DNA of 21,751 bases from a virus: positions 1-21,751 of IMG/VR virus record IMGVR_UViG_3300044630_003211. One strand, given 5' to 3'. This document shows positions 1 to 11,068 of the stretch, in pieces (the stretch's first letter is position 1; the number at the start of each line of letters is the position of its first letter). Under the pieces are notes generated by a model. The model was given only the letters and a program-made list of their open reading frames with translations. It searched no databases and had not been told where the DNA came from. The position numbers and the translations under genes were made by a program.

Positions 1-2905
1 TATTCATTTCAGTACTCTTTTGCTTTAAGAATTCAGGATCTATATCTTTTAATCCCGGCTCAGTTTCAATTGTTGTTCCTGCTATCTTACCATCTTTCTC
101 AACACCCTTTTCATTTTTAGGTGGTGGGGTTTCTATTGGAGTAAACTTACCAGGAACATCAGTACCATCAGTCTTTTTAGCTGCAGGTTGCTCAGCCGGC
201 TTTTCAGTTGATGTAGTTGGTTGTTGTACCGGTTCTTCTTTTGAAGATGTTGCAGCTGCTTTTGCTCTTTGAGTAGCTTTTTTAACTGCTCTTGGAGGAA
301 GTTCTTGTACCGTTATCTTTTCACCATTTTGTAAAGTACCTGTAATTGATTTTTCAAATAGTGCAAATACATCTTCGTTTAAAGAATTCTCAAATGCCAT
401 TTCAACCACCGATTCGGTTCTTACATATTTTGCAGGACCATTTGGTTTATCGGAATAATATCCACCACCAATAGAATATAATGAACCACCGCTATCAGTT
501 TTAGCTTCTTTGCCCGGCTTCTCTTTTTTTATATCATCCTTAGTTGCTTTTGGAGTTTCTTCCGGCTTAGTTGGTTCTTCTTTTGGTTTATCCTCAGGCT
601 TATCTTTTGGTTTAGTATCAGTTGGAGTTTCCTCAGGTTTTTTTGCTGAAGGTTGTTCCGGCTTAGTATCAGTTGGAGTTTCCTCAGGTTTAGCTGGTTC
701 TTCTTTTGGTTTATCTTCCGGCTTATCTTCTGGTTTAGTATCAGTTGGTTGCTCAGGTTTTTGTTGTGATTTCATTCTCTGTCTTCTCATATCAACATGC
801 GAATTACCAACCGGTGCAATTACTGTATATCCAGCATCTTCTGCTTCTTTAATTTTTCTATCTAATTCTTTTTGACGGAAACCATTATAAGCCTGTTGGC
901 CTTTCATAATTTCATTATCACCCATTTTACCCTCATCGTTATAATTTAACTCATAAAGGTCTTTCTTTTGTGCATCCGTTAAATTATTCCAATCAACCTC
1001 ACCATCAAATTGTGAACTTCCACCTTTTTTAGCTTGGTCTATAATCCATTGTTTACCTTCATCATCTAAATAATCTTCAGGCTTTAGATTATCACCTTGT
1101 CCAACCATATTAGTCCAAATAGATGCTCTAGATTTTGATGGGCTACCTAATTCTTTTTCTATTTCTTTATATACTTGAGATTTATCATCTTCTATATTTG
1201 CATTTTCATCCCAACTACTTTCTTCTGCATTATCAAAGTGTCCTTTTACTCCATCTCTAATTTCAGCTTGCTCTCCACCAAATTGAATATTACCATCCTT
1301 ATCTTTACTCATACCACCTTCACCCACAAACATTACTTTTGTATCTTTAGGTAGTTTTTGTATTTGCTCAATGGTTTGCTTTGTACTTTCAAGTTCACCA
1401 CCATGCTCTACACCAATAATCAATGAACCATTTGGAGTTGTATCAACATCTAAATCTTCTTGATTACCATTTTCATCTTTAGTAGTTTTTCTTTTCTTTA
1501 AATTAGATGCTGCTTTTGTAGTTTGTTCTTTGGTTTTTTCCTTTTTTGCGTTTTGCTTTATTTTTTCTCTAACATCTTTTGTAGCTTTTACTTGATTTAA
1601 TAAGTCCGGGTCCATTTTATCCCAATCAAGTCCTGTATTTGCAAATAGTTCAGGATGTTTAGCTTGTAATCTTTTTAAAGATTCTATATCATTTGCATCA
1701 CTTTCTGCTTTATCTAATAAGTCATATAAATCAGAAGTTGCTTTATCTATCTTTGTTTCTTCGGGCTCATCACCTAATGCAGCTGGTGCTGGTGGTTCTT
1801 CACCATCTTTAGGTTCTTCTCCATCTGCTGGTGGGGTTGTATCGGGCTTTGATGGCTCGTTTGCTGGCGGTTCTTCATTAGGGCCGGCTTCAGGTCCTTT
1901 TGGTTCGTCATCTCCCCATTTTGCAGAAGTTCTTTCACCACCATCACTATCTGGATATGGAATATCGGCTTTATATGGTTCTCCATATTTTTCCTCATAC
2001 TCTTTTTTTCTTGCAAGGAAATTTTCTGCTGCAGCATCTGCGATTTCTTTATCACCACCCTTGCTTGCGTTTCTCATTTCCTTTTCCACCTTATGCTGTG
2101 CGTATTCAGTATTAGCTTTATCAGCTGCTTTATCATCACCACTCTTTTGAGCATCATGCATTTTTTTCTCCGCATCAGTTATGGCTGTATCTAATTGAGT
2201 ATCACTCATAGCATGTAGTGAATCATCATATCCTTTTTTCTTTGCTTCTTCCTTATCCTTTGCTACTTTATCAGCCTTATTTTTAAAATCTTCAGGACTT
2301 CCAGGAGTTGGTTCTTTTTCAGCTTCACTATCCTCTTTATCCTTTTGTGCTAATTTTTCACTAGCAGCTTTTTCTCTATCTAAACGAGCTCCCATAGCAG
2401 GGTCTGCTTTTGGGTCAAACATTGCTGCTGCTTTTTTCTTTTTTTCATCTTCAGCTGCAGCTCCACCTTCTTTACCATCTTCACCTTCTTTACCTTTTGC
2501 ATCTTCTGGTGGTTTAGCCTTACCATCTTTCTCCGCACCTAATTCCTGATTCATTGTTTCTCTTTCAGGACTTCCTTCCGGTGGTAATGTTGCTTCTGCA
2601 GCCTTTCTACCAGGGGAATCTTCAGGCTGTCTTAATAAATTACCAACAATACCTTCTTTATCTTCACCACTAGCACTTTTATATCTAACTTTTTTATTAA
2701 GTGCTGGATTTGTAAACCCGCCAGCTTCTGCTTCATTCAAGCTTTGTAATATTTCAGATTTAACATGACCCAAACCCATTTCGTTTAACACAATTTCCAA
2801 TTCTTTTACATGCATTGGATTTTTTGGGTTTGGCATTCCATCATTTACTCTGTATGCCCAATCAGCTACTATTTCGTTTATTAATTCAGATAAATTCATA
2901 TTCAT
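1..2905 (-). CDS. Giant Pro/Glu/Lys-rich phage protein with a candidate TIKI/ChaN/EreA-like domain (3' end outside window)
   Basis: An open frame of 968 codons runs from an ATG at 2905 off the left edge without a stop. The start overlaps the stop of the endonuclease gene (TAATG), which suggests translational coupling; a second ATG lies two codons later. Residues 1-95 form a compact domain (HVKELEIVLNEMGLGHV, then NPALNKKVRYKSASG). Residues 100-480 are low-complexity, highly charged and likely coiled or disordered. Residues about 492-710 look folded: GVEHGG with His501, FVGEGG with Glu529, and VGNSHVDM with His703. This G-x-E-H ... E ... G-x-x-H spacing recalls the TIKI/TraB/ChaN/EreA hydrolase superfamily, which is an inference from motifs only. 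Residues 715-795 are KPEE/TPTDTK repeats, followed by SIGGGYYSD and EMAFENSLNED segments. It may be a virion-associated or injected protein. The function is unknown. Confidence 0.8.
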   Translation of the reverse strand, partial: MNMNLSELINEIVADWAYRVNDGMPNPKNPMHVKELEIVLNEMGLGHVKSEILQSLNEAEAGGFTNPALNKKVRYKSASGEDKEGIVGNLLRQPEDSPGRKAAEATLPPEGSPERETMNQELGAEKDGKAKPPEDAKGKEGEDGKEGGAAAEDEKKKKAAAMFDPKADPAMGARLDREKAASEKLAQKDKEDSEAEKEPTPGSPEDFKNKADKVAKDKEEAKKKGYDDSLHAMSDTQLDTAITDAEKKMHDAQKSGDDKAADKANTEYAQHKVEKEMRNASKGGDKEIADAAAENFLARKKEYEEKYGEPYKADIPYPDSDGGERTSAKWGDDEPKGPEAGPNEEPPANEPSKPDTTPPADGEEPKDGEEPPAPAALGDEPEETKIDKATSDLYDLLDKAESDANDIESLKRLQAKHPELFANTGLDWDKMDPDLLNQVKATKDVREKIKQNAKKEKTKEQTTKAASNLKKRKTTKDENGNQEDLDVDTTPNGSLIIGVEHGGELESTKQTIEQIQKLPKDTKVMFVGEGGMSKDKDGNIQFGGEQAEIRDGVKGHFDNAEESSWDENANIEDDKSQVYKEIEKELGSPSKSRASIWTNMVGQGDNLKPEDYLDDEGKQWIIDQAKKGGSSQFDGEVDWNNLTDAQKKDLYELNYNDEGKMGDNEIMKGQQAYNGFRQKELDRKIKEAEDAGYTVIAPVGNSHVDMRRQRMKSQQKPEQPTDTKPEDKPEDKPKEEPAKPEETPTDTKPEQPSAKKPEETPTDTKPKDKPEDKPKEEPTKPEETPKATKDDIKKEKPGKEAKTDSGGSLYSIGGGYYSDKPNGPAKYVRTESVVEMAFENSLNEDVFALFEKSITGTLQNGEKITVQELPPRAVKKATQRAKAAATSSKEEPVQQPTTSTEKPAEQPAAKKTDGTDVPGKFTPIETPPPKNEKGVEKDGKIAGTTIETEPGLKDIDPEFLKQKSTEMN
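551..748 (-). repeat. Imperfect internal repeat encoding KPEE/TPTDTKPE linkers
   Basis: Two near-identical 55-bp copies lie at 571-625 and 694-748, a period of 123 bp (41 codons). A perfect 28-bp repeat also occurs at 613-640 and 664-691. Periods are multiples of three, so the frame is preserved and the protein gains Pro/Glu/Lys/Thr linker. This looks like slippage or recombination within a disordered linker of the giant protein. Confidence 0.8.
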
Positions 2906-3546: not shown

Positions 3547-4833
3547 TTATAGTTTTCCGTAATCCAAACCCCAACTAGCCTTAACAGGAAAACCACTTCC
3601 TTCAATGATTTCCTTCAATCCCTTAATCAAACTCTTATCAATATCAGTCGGAACATCAAAAAGAAACGAGTCATAGGTATATAAACAAAAGTTAATACCA
3701 CTCCCCTTAATGTAATCCAATATCTTTCTCATAACCTCAATATTCATCTCAGTCTCAACGGCCTGTAATAAGTAGTTGAATACCTTTTGTGCATTTGGTT
3801 GTTCTATCCAACTTAATGGAATTTCTCTATAAGGTGTTTGTAAGTATCCGTCCTTTTGTACTTCAATCCATAAGTTATCAATGTAATCAGCTACCGCATT
3901 GAAATATGGTATCTTACGAAAATCATCATCGATACCACCATAAAGTAATTGGAACGTAATTCCCTTCGATTCATCCACACTACATCCATATTGTTGGGCT
4001 AACCACTCATGCACACTGGTTGTTGGAAGTTCGAAATTCACCAACTTACCAATCAATCGAGGGTGATATGCGTTATAATCCATTTGTAGGAATATACCAT
4101 CGGAAACGAAACATTCTCTACTACCATCGGTTTTGTTTAGGGCGGCATAGTTCACACCACCATGTCTATTAGATGGTCTACCTGTCACCGTAAATGGATT
4201 GTATTCCGTAAACACTAAATTATCGGGTGAAAGCTGTTTAGTGGCTTGAGGCCATCTATCAGTAAATTTTTTCCCATCGACACGGATTCCGAATTGTTCA
4301 ATATCTGAAAGGGTTGGTATAAACACTTCATTGTACCACTTAAGAGTAGTAGTGTAAGGTTCATTATGGAAGTACTTACCGAATTGCGGTTCTATCACTT
4401 CTACAATCTTCATTAGAGGAAGGGATTGTATCAAGTCATCTCTATACCCTTTGTGAGTTAGGGTTGAAAGGAGAGGATTTAAAGGGGCTTCATAATCAAT
4501 TACCTTTGCTTCCTTTCTAAAGTATGCCGAATCTACATCATATAGATTTACCGAAACATTAAGAGTATGTAATATCTTTTTCTTTTGGAATACCCACTTT
4601 TGTCCGTTGGTATTAAGTACCGTCTCTATTTCTTCATTAGATAGCGATAGAGCGTCTGTATGTTTATGTGGTAATATGTATAACCCATCGGAACATCGTA
4701 CAACTACGAGCGAAAGAGAAGTGTTTAACGGATGCTTACTATTATCTACCCACAATGGATACCAAATAGATACTTCCGTTTCCAGCTTTTGTTTTAATTC
4801 ATTAATTTCCTCAATAGACTCAACAATATTCAT
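3547..4833 (-). CDS. Minimal family A DNA polymerase-like protein
   Basis: Using the ATG at 4833 (MNIVESIEE) gives 428 aa. An in-frame ATG at 4869 lies inside the upstream terminator and is less likely. The C-terminal half shows Pol I palm/fingers motifs in order: TVTGRPSNR (215-223), equivalent to the TGRLSS region; motif A LQMDYNAYHPR with Asp252; motif B ESKGITFQLLYGG (288-300) with the Lys, Phe and Tyr-Gly of the O-helix; motif C YTYDSFLFDV with Asp388. The usual motif C His-Asp-Glu is Tyr-Asp-Ser, and the first O-helix Arg is missing. FGIRVDGKKF (181-190) matches the element before the palm. The N-terminal 150 residues could be a degenerate 3'-5' exonuclease-like domain without visible catalytic acids, and there is little room for a normal thumb. 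Both metal-binding Asp residues remain, so activity is possible. T4 itself uses a family B polymerase. Confidence 0.75.
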   Translation of the reverse strand: MNIVESIEEINELKQKLETEVSIWYPLWVDNSKHPLNTSLSLVVVRCSDGLYILPHKHTDALSLSNEEIETVLNTNGQKWVFQKKKILHTLNVSVNLYDVDSAYFRKEAKVIDYEAPLNPLLSTLTHKGYRDDLIQSLPLMKIVEVIEPQFGKYFHNEPYTTTLKWYNEVFIPTLSDIEQFGIRVDGKKFTDRWPQATKQLSPDNLVFTEYNPFTVTGRPSNRHGGVNYAALNKTDGSRECFVSDGIFLQMDYNAYHPRLIGKLVNFELPTTSVHEWLAQQYGCSVDESKGITFQLLYGGIDDDFRKIPYFNAVADYIDNLWIEVQKDGYLQTPYREIPLSWIEQPNAQKVFNYLLQAVETEMNIEVMRKILDYIKGSGINFCLYTYDSFLFDVPTDIDKSLIKGLKEIIEGSGFPVKASWGLDYGKL

Positions 4834-4838
4834 AGATA

Positions 4839-4870
4839 CAAAGATACAAAAAAAATCCCAAACTACCAAA
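4839..4870 (-). promoter_or_regulatory. Possible Bacteroidota-type promoter (TTTG ... TATCTTTG)
   Basis: On the minus strand TTTG (4870-4867) lies 20 bp before TATCTTTG (4846-4839), fitting the Bacteroidota housekeeping pattern TTTG / TAnnTTTG. The -7-like element ends 5 nt before the polymerase-like ATG, so a transcript would be nearly leaderless. It overlaps the tmRNA terminator, so the match could be chance. Confidence 0.3.
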
Positions 4871-4890
4871 TTAATGTAGAATGGGATTTT
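4848..4890 (-). terminator. Rho-independent terminator after the tmRNA
   Basis: On the minus strand AAAATCCCA pairs with TGGGATTTT, and inside it CTAC pairs with GTAG around a 9-nt loop. A run of eight T follows. The first stem base is the A of the tmRNA CCA end, so termination is directly coupled to the mature 3' end. Confidence 0.85.
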
Positions 4891-5275
4891 GGTGGAGATG
4901 AGGGGAATCGAACCCCTGTCTTACAAAGTAATCATAATACCAGCATATCACACGTTTAGGTAAAGTTTAATCTTATTCACTTTCCAAAATAATTGGGGCC
5001 GTATGGTTAGTACAGCTTTCCACCAACCTATCAGTTTTTAAGAGCCGATAGGTAGAGCTCCGTTTTGTTCACTTCTATTTAAATGTTCCACGAGTGATGC
5101 GGAATGAACTAAGCAGCGTATGCGTACTCAGAAGCCCCAATGAATTCCATCATAGAATCAAAGGTCATAGTTGACATTTCGTCAGTTATTGTTTTGTACA
5201 GATTTAAAGACATCTAGCACTTCTGTCTACGTGTGGTACTACCATTCTCATTGCAATCAAGTCCATGGCATCCCC
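4890..5275 (-). ncRNA. ssrA: tmRNA (transfer-messenger RNA), phage-encoded
   Basis: This is a one-piece tmRNA of 386 nt with encoded CCA. It rescues stalled ribosomes and tags the unfinished protein for proteolysis. The acceptor stem pairs GGGGAUG at 5275-5269 with CAUCUCC at 4900-4894 (one G-U), then discriminator A and CCA. The T arm is AGGGG-TTCGATT-CCCCT. The D-like region carries UGGACUUGA, matching UGGAUUCGA of E. coli. Long-range helix P2 is supported by 5229-5235 pairing with 4949-4955 and a further 8-bp run next to it. A hairpin/pseudoknot region precedes the tag at about 5195-5232. A clean H-type pseudoknot follows it (stem 1 5057-5060/5042-5045; stem 2 5047-5053/5026-5032). Phage-type genes lie on both sides on the same strand, so it belongs to the phage genome. 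A promoter motif lies 9 nt upstream and a terminator abuts the 3' end. Confidence 0.95.
5109..5183 (-). other. tmRNA tag reading frame, about 24 codons
   Basis: The frame ends in GCT GCT TAG and stays open back past nt 93 of the tmRNA. By position (E. coli resumes at nt 90) and by the AAAACAATAACT linker just upstream, the resume codon is most likely GAC at 5183. The tag would be the charged Ala, then DEMSTM ..., ending GASEYAYAA. That is 25 residues against about 10 in most bacteria. The YAYAA end resembles the YALAA degron of ClpXP. A resume at ACT one codon earlier, or at GGG (5138) giving only GASEYAYAA, is possible but places the codon less well relative to the first pseudoknot. Confidence 0.65.
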
Positions 5276-5284
5276 ATATAATTA

Positions 5285-5293
5285 TGTAAATAT
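5285..5293 (-). promoter_or_regulatory. Late-promoter-like motif ATATTTACA before the tmRNA
   Basis: A one-base variant of ATATTTATA ends 9 nt before the first base of the mature tmRNA. If it is a -10-type element, transcription would begin at or just before the mature 5' end. This spacing is the best clue in the window to where the start lies relative to the motif. Confidence 0.45.
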
Positions 5294-5305
5294 ACGAATA
5301 ATTTG

Positions 5306-5674
5306 TTACAGTACCAAATCTTTCTTCTTTTTAAATTGAAGTAAATTTGGAAGATATGATTGTATTAGTGGTATCTTATCAACAATAGTCTTTATTGATT
5401 TAAAATTACATTCTTTTATTTCTGCATCAGTTCCTTTTACTTTCCAATCTAAAGATGCGGCTGTATAAAATGCATTTCCTAAAAACTTTTTGTATCCTAT
5501 ATAATCAACTTCAGTTATTCTAGAATTAGTATCATTTGCTTTTTGAATAAAATATCTTACAATATATCCCCTATCATAATCCAAATCAGTTAAGGTTGGT
5601 ATATGTGCTGATATTATTCTTTCATCAAAAGTACTACCTATATTTGATACTGTGTTATATCTGTTTAAATCCAT
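5306..5674 (-). CDS. Hypothetical protein, last gene of the baseplate operon
   Basis: The 122-aa product has no family I recognise. It is soluble, with no signal peptide or membrane segment, an N-terminal part rich in polar residues (MDLNRYNTVSNIG) and a basic tail (QFKKKKDLVL). It begins 11 nt after the stop of the hub protein with no promoter motif between them, so it is most likely co-transcribed and perhaps a small baseplate component. This is inferred from position only. Confidence 0.75.
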   Translation of the reverse strand: MDLNRYNTVSNIGSTFDERIISAHIPTLTDLDYDRGYIVRYFIQKANDTNSRITEVDYIGYKKFLGNAFYTAASLDWKVKGTDAEIKECNFKSIKTIVDKIPLIQSYLPNLLQFKKKKDLVL

Positions 5675-5685
5675 TTTATATTATA

Positions 5686-7974
5686 TTATCTTTGTAATCT
5701 AAAGCCACCTTCTATTTCAGTTTTCCAAATCATATCAGTAATTGTATGTTTTACAGATGTTACTTGAAAAAATCCAGTTTGTTCATATGCTTTTGGAATA
5801 CCATTTACTGCAAACTTATCACCTCTTTTAATACCACTCACACCATGTATAGTAAAACTAAATTTAATTGGCATTAATGCAGATACTCCATTTTCTTCTT
5901 TAACAACATCATTACCATTTTTTAATGATTCAAATACTAACTGGTCATTATATGCAGTAATATATGTCATTTCTTCTAATGTTTTTCCAAAATCAGAACT
6001 TGCAATCAAATCAATTTTTGGTGCATACCCAATTTTACTTAAAAACATTTGCATTGCCTTTTCTTTAGCTTTTTCAGCTGCTTCACTTTTTTCTTTTGCA
6101 GTAGGAGTTTTTGTAGTTCCCTTATCTGCTGGTTTAGCTTGCTTTCCCTCAATACTTTTTAAAACCAAATCATCCGAATCCGTAAAAAGTCCTTTTTTCT
6201 TTTTACTATTTACCTGAGGTTGACTTCCGTTTACTTTTTGTCCTAATCTATTTCCAATAATTTGATTCATCTTTGCACCACTAATATCTAAATCCAATGA
6301 AGCATCCATAAAAATAGAATTTGAACCAGCTACATCAAATCTATATGGAGTTCCAGATGTTTGTGGATTTACATTCATATCAACTACACATAATTCAGTA
6401 GAGCCATCCGATGAGTTTTGTTCTTGTATTTGAAAATCCCATACTCCACCAGCTGCTCCAGATATACCATTAAGAATTTGATATAATGCATCTTTTATAG
6501 AAAAGTTTTTAGTTTCTAATATACCTTTAACAAATTGCATATTAACATAAAGGTCTTCTAAAAATCCATAAGAAAGTGCGGGCTTATTTAACCCCACAAA
6601 TGTACCATCATCTCCGAATTGAATTTGTCCTCTACTTGCAACACTACCATTTGCTATTGCTTCATCGTATGGAAATCTAACCTTTGTAGTACCATCGGTA
6701 ACTGAATTATCAATTACGTTTGTAAAATCGGTTTGAGCTTGGTTTTCTGATGCTTGTAGTAATGAAAACTTTGGTGTTTGTGGATTTGGTATGAACAATT
6801 TATTTTTATCAGTACTAAATATTTTTGGAAATGCAAAACACACAGTGTTTTTTGTATTTACTCTAACACTAACTAATTTATTTCCAACTTTAAATGCCTG
6901 AAATCCTATTTTACTTAAAACTTCAGATAATACTGAAAATCTTATAAATCCACTATCTCCAATAAGTTCAGTACCTTCTGGTAAATCTACTTTTTTTGCA
7001 TCACCACCTTTATCTGCTGTACTTGCCCCACCTCCAAATGTAAATCCAAAAAAACTAGTTCCTTTTAGTTTTGAATTCATTTCAGCTTTTACATTTTCAT
7101 CTACGTTTATATAGTTTAATGTTGATGCAAAATTAACATCTTTTAATAATTCAGTAACTTCAAGACTTTGTTTATTGGATGGTAAATTATTAAATGCCAT
7201 CATAAACCTTTGCTTGCCAACATCTTGTTCAGATGATATATCAGATGATTCATAAGCCTCTGCTTTATTAGTAGTTGTTTCTTCTTTACCTTCGGTATTA
7301 TCAGCTGCATTAAGAAATGCTGGCAGTTCTGTAAATCCTGTACACTTTACAGTTATTGTCCATTCTTGTCCTGTCATTGAAACACTACCACCTGTTATAA
7401 ATCCTAAATAATTATCATAGTGTCCGCCAGATGCTTTTCTTTTCTTATTAACAACTTGAAATGATTGATTTTCACCAACACTATCTCCCGTTAATCTTTG
7501 CTTATATTGAGATACTCCTTTATTTGTATTCCATCCCCATTCTAAAAATATAGTATATCCAGGCTCCAAATAATACTTACACATTGTATCCAATTGTGCT
7601 CTTGTATAACAAGTTATAGAAAATGTTGCTTTTCTAGAAATATTCCCAGCTCCCTCATCAACTTCAATTGAAGTTATATTTGGTTTAGGTCTATATCCAT
7701 GAAACTCACCAGATGGTGAAATAAAATTTCCATACCAAGTAGTACCAACTGTACCACTCATTGTATCATTACCATATATTGAGCCTGCTCCACCACGTGG
7801 GTCACCAAATAAAGAAAAGTTTGGATTAGATATTATTTGACAACCACCGCCTACACCAGACGCTACCCTAACCCAAGCATTTAAGTTAGACACTCTCATA
7901 GTATCTCCTTTTCTAAGGGCTAGTTCTTTTTGAACGTAATCTGCGATGTTGGAAAAATTTGGAAACGCTGACAT
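5686..7974 (-). CDS. Baseplate hub protein (late-control-D/gp27-like)
   Basis: The 762-aa product sits directly after a LysM-like baseplate gene, the usual place of the hub/spike in contractile tails. Residues about 95-160 contain PKPNITSIEVDEG and a segment ending PGYTIFLEWGWN, a pattern I associate with hub-type virion proteins of T4-like phages. A low-complexity Lys/Thr/Ala linker lies near 590-640. The C-terminus (GVSGIKRGDKFAV, then GFFQVTSVKHTI and a Trp-Lys-Thr motif) resembles the final beta domain of late control D proteins (G-sG-pGd-F ... fqV--v-H ... W-T). It likely forms the central hub attaching the spike to the tube. No lysozyme domain is visible. Start ATG is 9 nt after the previous stop. 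Confidence 0.7.
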   Translation of the reverse strand: MSAFPNFSNIADYVQKELALRKGDTMRVSNLNAWVRVASGVGGGCQIISNPNFSLFGDPRGGAGSIYGNDTMSGTVGTTWYGNFISPSGEFHGYRPKPNITSIEVDEGAGNISRKATFSITCYTRAQLDTMCKYYLEPGYTIFLEWGWNTNKGVSQYKQRLTGDSVGENQSFQVVNKKRKASGGHYDNYLGFITGGSVSMTGQEWTITVKCTGFTELPAFLNAADNTEGKEETTTNKAEAYESSDISSEQDVGKQRFMMAFNNLPSNKQSLEVTELLKDVNFASTLNYINVDENVKAEMNSKLKGTSFFGFTFGGGASTADKGGDAKKVDLPEGTELIGDSGFIRFSVLSEVLSKIGFQAFKVGNKLVSVRVNTKNTVCFAFPKIFSTDKNKLFIPNPQTPKFSLLQASENQAQTDFTNVIDNSVTDGTTKVRFPYDEAIANGSVASRGQIQFGDDGTFVGLNKPALSYGFLEDLYVNMQFVKGILETKNFSIKDALYQILNGISGAAGGVWDFQIQEQNSSDGSTELCVVDMNVNPQTSGTPYRFDVAGSNSIFMDASLDLDISGAKMNQIIGNRLGQKVNGSQPQVNSKKKKGLFTDSDDLVLKSIEGKQAKPADKGTTKTPTAKEKSEAAEKAKEKAMQMFLSKIGYAPKIDLIASSDFGKTLEEMTYITAYNDQLVFESLKNGNDVVKEENGVSALMPIKFSFTIHGVSGIKRGDKFAVNGIPKAYEQTGFFQVTSVKHTITDMIWKTEIEGGFRLQR

Positions 7975-8281: not shown

Positions 8282-11068
8282 TTAAGTTATATTATCACTT
8301 TTTTCATAGAACTTTCCATCTACATAAAAACCTTGCATTTTTCCTGTTTTAATCAATGATTGCTTTACAGCCTCAACTCCTGTATATCTTTCTACAATTT
8401 CCTTTTGCTGCCCCATCGGCCCATCCCAATAAGAATAAGTATATCCAAATGTACTAACGTATCCTTGCGTTTGTATAAGTTTTCCATTAGCATATATTTT
8501 TCCTTCATATCCATCGCCAGTATCCCTTGCTTCAATTTTATATGTTGGTGGTGGTTCTACTTTTGGTACTGCTGCGTTTTCCAAACCAGAATTTGTTTGT
8601 GTTGCTGTTGTTGCTTGAGCAGGATTATTAACAGGTGCAGTTGCTGACACAGCATCAACCTTTGGGGTAGTTGTATTAATAGATGCCTCAGCTTGTGCGG
8701 TACTTTCTTTATTATTTGAGTCAGCTGCAGCTTCTATTGAAGTTGCTGTATTTTCTGTTGTAAACGTTGATGATGTTTCTTTACCACTTTTATCTTTTCC
8801 TTTTCTAATTTCTCTAGGTAATTTATCAAATCCATATAAATAACCATCCTTTGTATTTGATTTTGATTCCACAAAGTTTAATGTTACACTAACATCTATT
8901 ATTTTTGGTAATTTGTAATTATCTAAAGATGTTGATTCCCCATTCAATTTGAATGATTCATTATCAGCCATACCCATAGCAGCAACAGGTCCAACTTCCC
9001 AAGTACTATTATCATCAACAGTATATGAAAGTTGTGCAATAAAACATTCTTTATTTTTATATAAATTTCCAATTGTAACTCTAAGGAATGGTGCAAGTAC
9101 TGCTATATTTCCTGCATATCCCTGTGGGTATGCTAATGATGTCAAAAAGTTTAATCTTTGCCAAGCTGCTATATGTTGTAATGGTGTAGTTGAATATACT
9201 TTAAAATTAAAAGATACACTTCTTTCTATACCAGTATAAGTCCAATATGGAAATGGTGAACCAATAAATTTAGCCGAATCCCAACTTGGTGTTGTAGTTT
9301 CTGTAATACCAGATAAAGTTGCTCTGAAGTTTACTGATTGCTTTTTTGCAATTGATGTAAATTTTAAAGTTATAAAATCATAATCATCCAATGTATCAGG
9401 CCCTATTTTTAATTCACTACCAGCATATTGAGTTTTTTCATTTACAAAATCAGTTTTACCACTACTATCAATACCATATTTTGTTTTTAAAGTTACTTTA
9501 GGAGTTTGTGCATCTTTTAATGATGAATAAGTACTAATAGTAACTCCCGGTCTTTCAGCTGATGTTGCGCTTGTACTCATATCGGCAGTTGCTGCGGTTA
9601 GTGCTGCTAACTTAGATGATAAATCATTTCTTAATGCAACATCATCCTGCGATGAATCAACCGTCTCTGAATATTTTGTTTTACCATCGTGCTTAGATTC
9701 TACTCCGGCCGCTATTGCTTTTTCATCCTTTGCAGCCAAATTTTGTTGTCCTTCTTTTCTACCTTCGGATAACTTAGCAGTTGCATCTTTTGTTGTTGAA
9801 TCTAATGTTTCTTTGGTAGATGCAAATGGATTTTTAACTGGTAATGTTTTACCTGTTAATGATATATCAGGAGCTACTTCCGGAACACCTGGTTTAGCTA
9901 CGGCCGCACCTTTAGATTTAGATTCATCATTAGCAGTATTTAATCCATCTAATTTGGATGATAAATCGTTTCTTAATTTAATATCATCCGATTTAGCATC
10001 TATTGTAGATGAATATGTAATATTAGCATCTTTAGCTCCTGCAGGTGTATCTTTTTTTGTATCGCCTATTTTTGTTTTACCATCCGATATTGCTTGTTGT
10101 CCTTGCTTTTGGGCCTCTGCTAATTTTGTTTTTCCACTTTCAACTGCTGTTTTAAATTTATCACTAACACTTGAAAATAATCCACCAGGATTTGGAATAT
10201 CCAATCCTTTTGATTTTGGTACTAACTCATCTATTTTTTTATTAACACGGGGGCCGCCACCTAATGCTTTTGTTTCTTGTGCAACTAAAATAGATGAAAG
10301 GTCATTTCTTTTAAAATAATCTTCATCAGTTGGACTTATAGTATCTGAATATTTTCCGAAACTATCGTATTGTACTTCTTGGTCACTTTTACCTGCTAAG
10401 TTTTGTGCACCCTGCTTAGGTGCTCCAAATAATTTTTTCTTTATTTCACCTTTAAGTAAATTTATACCTGCTCCCAATAATTGATTACCAATTTGCTTAG
10501 GAGTTCCTCTTGCACTATTCTTTAAAACTTGTCCAACTAAATTACCTTTAGAATCTCCTTTAATTTTAGCAAGAGTAATCATCGTATCAGGTTCTTTACC
10601 TGCTTTGAAATCTGCGTTTAATGAAATCTTTGTTGGTATAGTTGATTCAGGAAAAGCAATACCTAATTTACCAGCAATTTTTAATCCAAAATCTTCTGCT
10701 TTTTTAAGGAAGTTACCAACAATACCAGCATCTTGTGGGTTATTGGAATTTACACTATCCTTCATTATTTCAACTAGTCTAGTTGATTTTTTTTGAAATT
10801 TAAATATATCAGTACCATATATTAAAGGTGCTGATAATGTATTTATTATTCGTAATCCACTTGTTTCTTCTTCTAATCTAGTTTCACCTTTGGTTGTTGA
10901 TATTTTTCGTCTAATTGCAGTTGCTGCGTTAAAAGATGGTTGTAATAATACCGTAGTGTTCGCACTTATAGGTAAATCCTTACTATTGCGGATATCATAT
11001 TTCTGCTCCGCTGTTTTACCATCGGCTAACACTTTGGTCTTAAATAATTCTTCTATTGTCTTACCCAT
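8282..11068 (-). CDS. Large baseplate / tail-tube-end protein with three internal repeats
   Basis: The 928-aa product lies between the tape measure and the LysM protein. Residues 1-200 are folded, and 200-500 are charged linkers with three copies of a module ending RNDLSS (about 236-258, 349-371, 463-485). Residues about 560-760 form the best-conserved part, with FPYWTYTGIERSVSF, AWQRLNFLTSLAYPQGYAG and LAPFLRVTIGNLY, then a beta segment ending STWEVGP. Such a domain is typical of tube-initiator or baseplate hub-proximal proteins (T4 gp48/gp54 position), an assignment based mainly on synteny. Residues 770-850 are Ser/Thr/Ala-rich; the C-terminus is a small Tyr/Gly-rich domain. The start is 2 nt after the tape measure stop, indicating tight coupling. 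Confidence 0.7.
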   Translation of the reverse strand: MGKTIEELFKTKVLADGKTAEQKYDIRNSKDLPISANTTVLLQPSFNAATAIRRKISTTKGETRLEEETSGLRIINTLSAPLIYGTDIFKFQKKSTRLVEIMKDSVNSNNPQDAGIVGNFLKKAEDFGLKIAGKLGIAFPESTIPTKISLNADFKAGKEPDTMITLAKIKGDSKGNLVGQVLKNSARGTPKQIGNQLLGAGINLLKGEIKKKLFGAPKQGAQNLAGKSDQEVQYDSFGKYSDTISPTDEDYFKRNDLSSILVAQETKALGGGPRVNKKIDELVPKSKGLDIPNPGGLFSSVSDKFKTAVESGKTKLAEAQKQGQQAISDGKTKIGDTKKDTPAGAKDANITYSSTIDAKSDDIKLRNDLSSKLDGLNTANDESKSKGAAVAKPGVPEVAPDISLTGKTLPVKNPFASTKETLDSTTKDATAKLSEGRKEGQQNLAAKDEKAIAAGVESKHDGKTKYSETVDSSQDDVALRNDLSSKLAALTAATADMSTSATSAERPGVTISTYSSLKDAQTPKVTLKTKYGIDSSGKTDFVNEKTQYAGSELKIGPDTLDDYDFITLKFTSIAKKQSVNFRATLSGITETTTPSWDSAKFIGSPFPYWTYTGIERSVSFNFKVYSTTPLQHIAAWQRLNFLTSLAYPQGYAGNIAVLAPFLRVTIGNLYKNKECFIAQLSYTVDDNSTWEVGPVAAMGMADNESFKLNGESTSLDNYKLPKIIDVSVTLNFVESKSNTKDGYLYGFDKLPREIRKGKDKSGKETSSTFTTENTATSIEAAADSNNKESTAQAEASINTTTPKVDAVSATAPVNNPAQATTATQTNSGLENAAVPKVEPPPTYKIEARDTGDGYEGKIYANGKLIQTQGYVSTFGYTYSYWDGPMGQQKEIVERYTGVEAVKQSLIKTGKMQGFYVDGKFYEKSDNIT
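9600..10370 (-). repeat. Three protein-level repeats (RNDLSS modules) at about 113-residue period
   Basis: FGKYSDTISPTDEDYFKRND, ITYSSTIDAKSDDIKLRND and KTKYSETVDSSQDDVALRND each run into LSS. They are separated by 112-114 residues of Lys/Gly/Gln-rich linker containing related KEGQQ or KQGQQ segments. The pattern YS-T(I/V)-D(D/E)--RNDLSS indicates internal triplication, with DNA identity already degraded. Confidence 0.75.

What the first reader, a model, noticed from the sequence alone, without database searches (positions are those of the whole stretch)
4890..5275. Phage-borne tmRNA with an apparently extended (about 25-residue) proteolysis tag
All core tmRNA parts can be paired by eye: acceptor stem, T arm, P2, a pseudoknot region and encoded CCA. 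The gene lies between phage tail-type genes and a phage replication-type gene. With the resume codon at nt 93, as geometry predicts, the tag frame has 24 codons without a stop and ends in YAYAA. Typical bacterial tags are 8-14 codons. Some phage tmRNAs, for example in mycobacteriophages, are known to carry long tags, so the phage copy may alter how host or phage proteins are marked, or replace the host tmRNA after takeover.
Basis: partly seen in the sequence, partly recalled or inferred. Interest (0 to 1): 0.8.

Follow-up and report, generated by a model that had tools for sequence, protein, structure and literature searches.

The report
Phage tmRNA with long conserved tag
A family of large aquatic phages, probably infecting Bacteroidota, carries its own ribosome-rescue RNA whose degradation tag is more than twice as long as those of likely hosts because of a conserved extra peptide segment, which suggests the phages change how unfinished proteins are marked in infected cells.

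Summary
Window 4890-5275 (-) is a complete one-piece tmRNA. Translation resumes at GAC (5183), not GGG (5138), giving a 24-codon tag, DEMSTMTFDSMMEFIGASEYAYAA, besides the tRNA-borne Ala.

Of 74 phage loci found through the neighbouring polymerase-like gene, 66 carry a homologous tag; seven of the other eight are cut off there. Tags located without using their own motif are all 23-26 residues (82 of 94 loci gave one). The segment evolves as protein: third codon positions vary most, pN/pS is 0.34-0.44.

The tag looks like a Bacteroidota tag (60 of 61 read: 8-10 residues) with about 14-16 residues inserted before the YAxAA end. A one-pattern scan of bacterial genome contigs found none encoding it. 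No SmpB was found in 12 phage records, so host SmpB is presumably used. A Bacteroidota-type promoter motif precedes 53 of 73 distinct copies.

Phage tmRNAs are known, and long tags occur in Mollicutes and other bacteria, so this is a new variant of a known kind. I favour the insert being a second recognition element for a protease or adaptor; the partner is unknown.

The parts
4890..5275 (-). tmRNA gene (one-piece, encoded CCA)
   Evidence: ARAGORN; RF00023 89.1 bits, full length
5269..5275 (-). acceptor stem 5' strand GGGGATG
   Evidence: RF00023 alignment
4890..4900 (-). acceptor stem 3' strand CATCTCC, discriminator A, CCA; G3.U70 alanine identity pair
   Evidence: RF00023 alignment; identity rule recalled
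4901..4917 (-). T arm AGGGG-TTCGATT-CCCCT
   Evidence: RF00023 alignment
5184..5188 (-). frame-setting element TAACT just upstream of the resume codon; A at -4 = 5187
   Evidence: read; 184 of 184 tag hits keep A at -4 (19 of them read by eye); role from PMC2481249
5109..5183 (-). tag reading frame: 24 codons (resume codon GAC) and stop TAG
   Evidence: conservation
5130..5177 (-). inserted tag segment MSTMTFDSMMEFIGAS (tag residues 3-18), absent from the Bacteroidota tags read
   Evidence: relatives' alignment against host tags; pN/pS 0.34
5112..5129 (-). host-like tag end EYAYAA, the presumed C-terminal degron
   Evidence: comparison with Bacteroidota tags
5288..5318 (-). Bacteroidota-type promoter motif TTTG-N20-TATATTT, 12 nt before the tmRNA start
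   Evidence: motif in 53 of 73 distinct upstream sequences, shuffled mean 2.3; consensus recalled
3547..4869 (-). downstream neighbour, DNA-polymerase-like ORF (true start probably the ATG at 4833)
   Evidence: phrog_17 E 3.2e-12; sequence
5306..5674 (-). upstream neighbour, 122-aa ORF without family match

Best explanation
A working phage tmRNA, transcribed from its own host-type promoter, is charged with Ala and, with host SmpB, enters ribosomes stalled on broken mRNAs during infection. It then adds Ala plus a 24-residue tag. The last residues (EYAYAA) act as an ordinary SsrA-like degron for a host AAA+ protease. The inserted 16 residues form a second, sequence-specific recognition element, probably a short amphipathic helix capped by Thr7, that docks tagged chains on a protease domain or adaptor (host Lon, or the ClpXP machinery). 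Clearance of aborted products is thereby made independent of, or faster than, the host's own tag. Shown by sequence and comparison: the gene, the resume codon, the long tag, its coding-type conservation, the promoter motif. Inferred: charging, use of host SmpB, degradation, and the docking role.
For: Full-length RF00023 match and ARAGORN call. Tag in 66 of 74 loci found through a neighbouring gene. Located by upstream element and Ala end only, without the motif, 82 of 94 neighbour-gene loci (window included) gave a tag, 82 of 82 being of this family and 23-26 residues long; in their 24 distinct sequences E, S and M (alignment columns 3, 5, 13, counted from 0) never vary and F, G, A (columns 15, 17, 18) vary in 3. 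In the wider set of 54 distinct sequences (41 peptides; found with a motif that itself fixes part of columns 4-10), insert pN/pS is 0.34, whole-tag mean pairwise difference 0.18/0.14/0.43 at codon positions 1/2/3, and in the insert frame +1 has a stop in 54 of 54 and frame +2 in 22 of 54. Motif-free set: pN/pS 0.44, positions 0.15/0.16/0.35. C-terminal A-A in 52 of 54. Bacteroidota tags are short and share the end. No SmpB in 12 records. Promoter motif. Weak AlphaFold helix over tag residues 8-23. A precedent for a long tag adapted to another protease is Mycoplasma with Lon (known to me from titles seen as references, and recall).
Against: No partner found: six AAA+ ORFs tested in four large contigs of the family look like a clamp loader, CbbQ/phrog_249-like or unknown ATPases; the CbbQ-like ones also match phage 'ATP-dependent protease' families weakly (E 1e-9 to 1e-14), which I read as shared AAA domain. 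One family contig (G005) has a ClpP-like ORF 3.5 kb from its tmRNA, but it matches head maturation proteases best. Lon and FtsH were not sought with their own models. Resemblance to Mollicutes tags is weak (z 2.3, 3 of 100 shuffles reach it), and other long tags score about as well (z 1.9 and 1.8). The helix prediction is of low confidence (mean pLDDT 62.6; six non-tag residues had to be included). The end is about as constrained as the insert (pN/pS 0.37 against 0.34). SmpB could lie in unsequenced parts. No other ORF with the motif was seen in two contigs, so there is no phage-side clue to a receptor.
Confidence: 0.45

Rival explanations
1. Linker model: the insert only lengthens the tail so that the degron reaches the protease or gives an unstructured start for unfolding; its exact sequence matters little.
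For: Tag length is kept at 23-26; a minority of near-identical tmRNAs have clearly different tag sequences (8 of 74 close pairs with tag divergence of 15% or more).
Against: Certain residues never or rarely vary even in the motif-free set, and pN/pS is 0.34-0.44; a pure spacer should drift more.
Confidence: 0.2
2. Redirection: the insert is a phage address label that steers tagged fragments to something other than the host's usual protease (for example a phage-made receptor), or slows their turnover.
For: Tag family found in viral contigs and not in bacterial ones. Some other long-tag phages encode a ClpA-like unfoldase (strong phrog_4871 match in 3 of 7 such IMG/VR records and in LR756508.1; the model also rings in all 14 control genomes), and one has SmpB beside its tmRNA, so phages can own parts of the pathway.
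Against: No such receptor recognised in the window's own family; the C-terminal A-A is retained in 52 of 54 tags.
Confidence: 0.2
3. Resume at GGG (5138): the true tag is a 9-residue GASEYAYAA and the upstream codons are non-coding RNA.
For: GASEYAYAA resembles the GExNYALAA tags of Bacteroidota. For some relatives ARAGORN starts at the next codon, Ala (e.g. L079, L133, L142, L157).
Against: Coding-type substitution upstream of that codon; frame-setting A at -4 of GAC in 184 of 184 hits; CM alignment; the L022 group has MESFDYAVAA with no Gly there.
Confidence: 0.03
4. A decayed or passenger host gene with no selected role in the phage.
For: Rfam score 89.1 bits is below the 60 Bacteroidota matches over the cut-off (105.6-197.6 bits), though one Flavobacteriales-order genome scores 82.4.
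Against: Conserved promoter motif, frame, tag and gene position in dozens of phage loci.
Confidence: 0.03

Closest known systems
Phage-encoded tmRNAs (mycobacteriophages such as Bxz1, Bacillus phage G; huge phages)
   Same: tmRNA on a large phage; listed in PMC4131195 (passages) and reported for huge phages, together with SmpB, in PMC7162821 (passages). Phage G's tag by ARAGORN is 13 residues.
   Different: Different phage group (tail-sheath phage, probable Bacteroidota hosts) and a conserved inserted tag motif. Long mycobacteriophage tags are recalled only and could not be checked.
Mollicutes extended tmRNA tags read by Lon (Gur and Sauer 2008; Ge and Karzai 2009)
   Same: ARAGORN tags of 20-32 residues in 29 of 30 called here (the other, 11 residues, looks misread), often an aromatic or Met block before a YAFA-like end.
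   Different: Phage ends in A-A in 52 of 54 sequences; resemblance weak; Lon use not tested. The two primary papers were seen only as references; one was not held.
Bacteroidota tmRNA tags (GENNYALAA type)
   Same: GE/DE-like start and YAxAA end. The window's tRNA-like domain scores best against two Flavobacteriales-order tmRNAs among 120 bacterial ones.
   Different: Host tags 8-10 residues in 60 of 61, without the insert. Kinship is weak and mixed: by blastn the window's best hit is L433 (organism not shown), and some other family members score best against other phyla.
Melnitz-type marine phage tmRNA (PMC9004378)
   Same: Phage tmRNA in an aquatic myophage; survey there: 402 of 18,146 phage genomes carry a tmRNA (passages).
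   Different: Two-piece permuted form with glutamine riboswitch; here one-piece with a Bacteroidota-type promoter motif.

Membership tests
tmRNA (RF00023) | tRNA-like domain with acceptor stem, T arm, encoded or added CCA | tested here: met
   full-length match above the gathering score
tmRNA (RF00023) | Alanine identity pair G3.U70 | tested here: met
   read from the acceptor strands for the window; the count over relatives is not usable because the search pattern fixed that base
tmRNA (RF00023) | Tag reading frame with stop, resume codon 11-12 nt after pseudoknot 1 and A at -4 | tested here: met
   geometry from PMC2481249 (passages)
tmRNA (RF00023) | Four pseudoknots | tested here: inconclusive
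   the CM aligns through the region with low posterior digits in parts
tmRNA (RF00023) | SmpB partner available | tested here: inconclusive
   none in 12 phage records, which may be fragments; host presumed to supply it
Permuted two-piece tmRNA | Tag downstream, tRNA halves permuted | tested here: not met
   linear order
Mollicutes-type extended, Lon-read tag | Tag of about 20-32 residues | tested here: met
Mollicutes-type extended, Lon-read tag | AFA-type end replacing ALAA | tested here: not met
   A-A end in 52 of 54 distinct sequences; two end in ATFA
Mollicutes-type extended, Lon-read tag | Degradation by Lon through several tag segments | not testable with these tools
   needs biochemistry

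The most novel reading that the evidence does not exclude
Large phages have repeatedly rebuilt the trans-translation tag into a longer two-part signal, so that during infection aborted proteins are read by a phage-chosen route. In this family a roughly 16-residue docking motif has been inserted into the Bacteroidota tag and is sometimes exchanged as a cassette, while other lineages bring their own SmpB or ClpA-like unfoldase.
Probability: 0.2. Interest if true: 0.78.

Novelty: new variant of a known kind. Interest (0 to 1): 0.56.

Why it matters
Why phages carry tmRNAs is open. A long tag segment conserved across many phages, missing from likely host tags, gives a defined peptide with which to ask which protease or adaptor reads it, and whether phages retune host protein quality control. 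It also warns that ARAGORN misplaces the tag in some phage tmRNAs, so tag surveys that rely on it may understate such cases. A new two-part degron could be useful as a tool.

Tried and rejected
Short tag starting at GGG: rejected. ARAGORN's short tags near nt 202-241 in some relatives (e.g. L009, L026, L073): rejected as misplacements, since the frame at nt 93 gives the long tag there too. 'Long tags are a phage hallmark': not supported by a matched survey. SmpB or a ClpA-like unfoldase in this family: not found (SmpB 0 of 12 records; phrog_4871 only weak AAA-domain matches in 6 of 11; ORFs read). ClpP-like ORFs in 3 of 14 records: one is in a family contig (G005); it and the one of Mel-JY01 match head maturation proteases best, that of LR756508.1 matches an 'ATP-dependent protease' family slightly better than a head protease. 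Tag motif elsewhere in phage proteins: none among 636 ORFs of two contigs cut in 20-kb pieces. Kinship with Mollicutes tags: weak. Independent peptide from the internal ATGs: rejected, as 30 of 54 tags have Leu at the first of them. Tag in the 'phages' collection: no match; a 36-residue positive control was found at E 3e-17, though a 23-residue query has less power. Sigma-70 and hairpin scan near the gene: no excess over shuffles.

Cassette exchange of the tag: only partly supported; among 74 pairs of 41 distinct tmRNAs with at most 6% divergence elsewhere, mean tag divergence was 0.059 against 0.030, 8 pairs at 0.15 or more, and in 11 the tag exceeded every other stretch.

Limits of counts. 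The 184 tag hits include overlapping loci of the same contigs and loci found through the tag itself, and the regular expression used fixes part of the motif; the counts free of this are 66 of 74 (regular expression, but the one intact locus it missed, L027, has no tmRNA there) and 82 of 94 (which kept the longest frame ending in Ala). Bacteroidota tags come from the 30 best-scoring loci of each of two searches (61 and 40 genomes, some shared) plus L444; the weaker-scoring tmRNAs were not read. The row list was cut in display; one search recounts it.

Full report
What is there. ARAGORN finds one tmRNA in the window, 4890-5275 on the minus strand, and it is the only Rfam match at gathering score (RF00023, 89.1 bits, E 9.9e-34, full length). 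The alignment shows the acceptor stem GGGGATG/CATCTCC with G3.U70, a T arm with TTCGATT loop and encoded CCA. The model's resume-codon columns fall on GAC at 5183. The 12 bases before it are AAAACAATAACT, with A at -4 (sequence). In E. coli the resume codon lies 12 nt after pseudoknot 1, and A86, four bases upstream, sets the frame (PMC2481249, passages). The tag is 24 codons and a TAG stop, so 25 residues are added counting the tRNA-borne Ala (inference from the known mechanism).

Where it is. The window is a virus record of 21,751 bases. Its genes include tail sheath, tail tube, tape measure, baseplate and tail fibre matches. A DNA-polymerase-like ORF lies downstream of the tmRNA (phrog_17; no Pfam match). 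Relatives of that ORF gave 74 loci. Contigs of the group reach 274 kb; of two contigs searched for tRNAs, the 274-kb one carries 26 and the 237-kb one 21, besides the tmRNA. Named relatives by the polymerase-like ORF (six records) are Flavobacterium phage immuto, Microcystis phage Mel-JY01 and the 484-kb LR756508.1, at 25-32% identity. The first two have no tmRNA over the cut-off, the third has.

The long tag is real. Of the 74 loci, 66 encode a homologous tag; seven of the other eight begin inside the tmRNA or the polymerase match, and one (L027) has no tmRNA at that place. ARAGORN misplaced the tag in several loci, but the nt-93 frame reads, for example, DVELSTWNFEDAMAFVGAYDYAVAA. A tag search of viral contigs found 152 stretches, of which the best 80 were kept. 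In all, 184 tag hits in overlapping loci gave 54 distinct DNA sequences and 41 peptides of 23-26 residues. Without any upstream condition, 184 of 184 have A at -4: 165 fit a strict element, 18 read ACAACT and one TTAACT.

Selection. In those 54 sequences, mean pairwise differences at codon positions 1, 2, 3 are 0.18, 0.14, 0.43; pN/pS is 0.34 in the insert and 0.37 in the end. Shifted frames of the insert have stops in 54 of 54 and 22 of 54, the remaining 32 having a ratio of 1.77. The expression that found these tags fixes part of the motif, so I repeated the count on neighbour-gene loci, locating the tag only by upstream element and Ala end. Then 82 of 94 loci gave a tag, 82 of 82 were of this family and 23-26 residues long, and 24 distinct sequences gave pN/pS 0.44 with 0.15/0.16/0.35 by position. 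These are pooled pairwise values, not corrected for relatedness.

Against the likely host. The tag was not confirmed in bacterial genome contigs: 41 stretches matched the one peptide pattern used, none was a relative by tblastn. In 61 Bacteroidota tmRNAs read here, 60 tags have 8-10 residues, GENNYALAA being commonest (12); one 14-residue call looks like an ARAGORN misplacement. The phage tag thus reads as a Bacteroidota tag with about 14-16 extra residues between a GE/DE-like start and the YAxAA end (inference). A TTTG-N18-22-TAnnTT[TA] motif lies upstream in 53 of 73 distinct upstream sequences (mean 2.3, maximum 6 in 200 shuffles); I recall this as the Bacteroidota promoter type. The motif is absent from several of the more distant members in that list. 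The tRNA-like domain of the window scores closest to two Flavobacteriales-order tmRNAs, but other comparisons are mixed. So the host is probably a member of the Bacteroidota.

Are long tags special to phages? No. Seven of the 20 viral ones belong to the present family. Among the bacterial ones whose titles were shown are candidate phyla and Mollicutes. What is special is the particular conserved segment in this phage group.

How it may work. The insert has E, S, T, T, F, M, F at invariant or nearly invariant columns, a pattern that fits a Thr-capped amphipathic helix. AlphaFold gives a helix over tag residues 8-23 at low confidence (mean pLDDT 62.6). The C-terminal A-A is kept in 52 of 54. Since no SmpB was found in 12 phage records, host SmpB would be needed. 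Since the six AAA+ ORFs tested look like a clamp loader, CbbQ-like or unknown ATPases, with only weak matches to phage 'ATP-dependent protease' families, host proteases would probably be needed too. I favour a two-part degron, as in Mycoplasma, where a long tag is said to be read by Lon (titles seen as references; recall). Sequence resemblance to 28 distinct Mollicutes tags is only weak (z 2.3, 3 of 100 shuffles; other long tags z 1.9 and 1.8).

Other phages. LR756508.1 has a tmRNA whose frame after the ATAACT element is 36 codons, a second tmRNA hit of 112 nt without mRNA part, a ClpA-like gene and a ClpP-like gene of uncertain role. A phage contig with portal and terminase (G108) carries a tmRNA with a 21-residue ARAGORN tag, an SmpB gene beside it and a ClpA-like gene. 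These show that phages can own more of the pathway, but do not show it for the window's family.

Novelty. Phage tmRNAs are known (PMC4131195; PMC7162821; PMC9004378; passages only). Ten library searches showed, in titles and abstract starts, no description of this tag family; the library holds only open-licence papers, so this is weak evidence. Verdict: new variant of a known kind.

Noticed in passing
L178:1501-1947 (LR756508.1:92434-92880): tmRNA of a 484-kb phage whose frame after ATAACT reads 36 codons (GVNNADYESAGFTAEDFAQMDGESLYHGSERKPAAV); ARAGORN calls an 8-residue tag instead.
   Followed up: partly
L180:1501-1612 (LR756508.1:414804-414915): A second RF00023 hit of 112 nt (58.2 bits) in the same phage with no mRNA-like part, like the tRNA-like-domain-only form reported for phage DS6A (PMC4131195).
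   Followed up: no
L218 / L544:14550-17704 (contig G108): Phage contig (portal, terminase) with ClpA-like AAA+ gene, M42/M20-type peptidase, tmRNA with 21-residue ARAGORN tag and adjacent SmpB gene.
   Followed up: partly
L535 (G109:C1:55804-57864): ClpA-like frame in a 118-kb contig with one TGA and one TAG inside; the same contig encodes a TonB-type outer membrane protein near the tmRNA, so it may be recoded, mis-assembled or not a phage.
   Followed up: no
L173, L174, L168: Variant tag ends...GADEATFA (reminiscent of Mollicutes AFA ends) and ...GAEDYAYQMAA.
   Followed up: no
G005:C1:28929-29441: ClpP-like ORF 3.5 kb from the tmRNA of a contig of this tag family; best PHROG match is a head maturation protease.
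   Followed up: partly
window 4839-4889: Just after the tmRNA: AAATCCCA...TGGGATTTTTTTT (possible terminator with a long loop, not found by the scan) overlapping TTTG-N20-TATCTTTG, a promoter-like motif before the polymerase-like gene.
   Followed up: no
L209, L251, L313: Three further viral contigs with unrelated ARAGORN tags of 31, 24 and 28 residues; sheath and terminase genes in the first, a baseplate gene in the second.
   Followed up: partly
window 2-2905, 5686-7974, 8282-11068: Three large ORFs (968, 762 and 928 aa) with no PHROG match at E 0.001.
   Followed up: no
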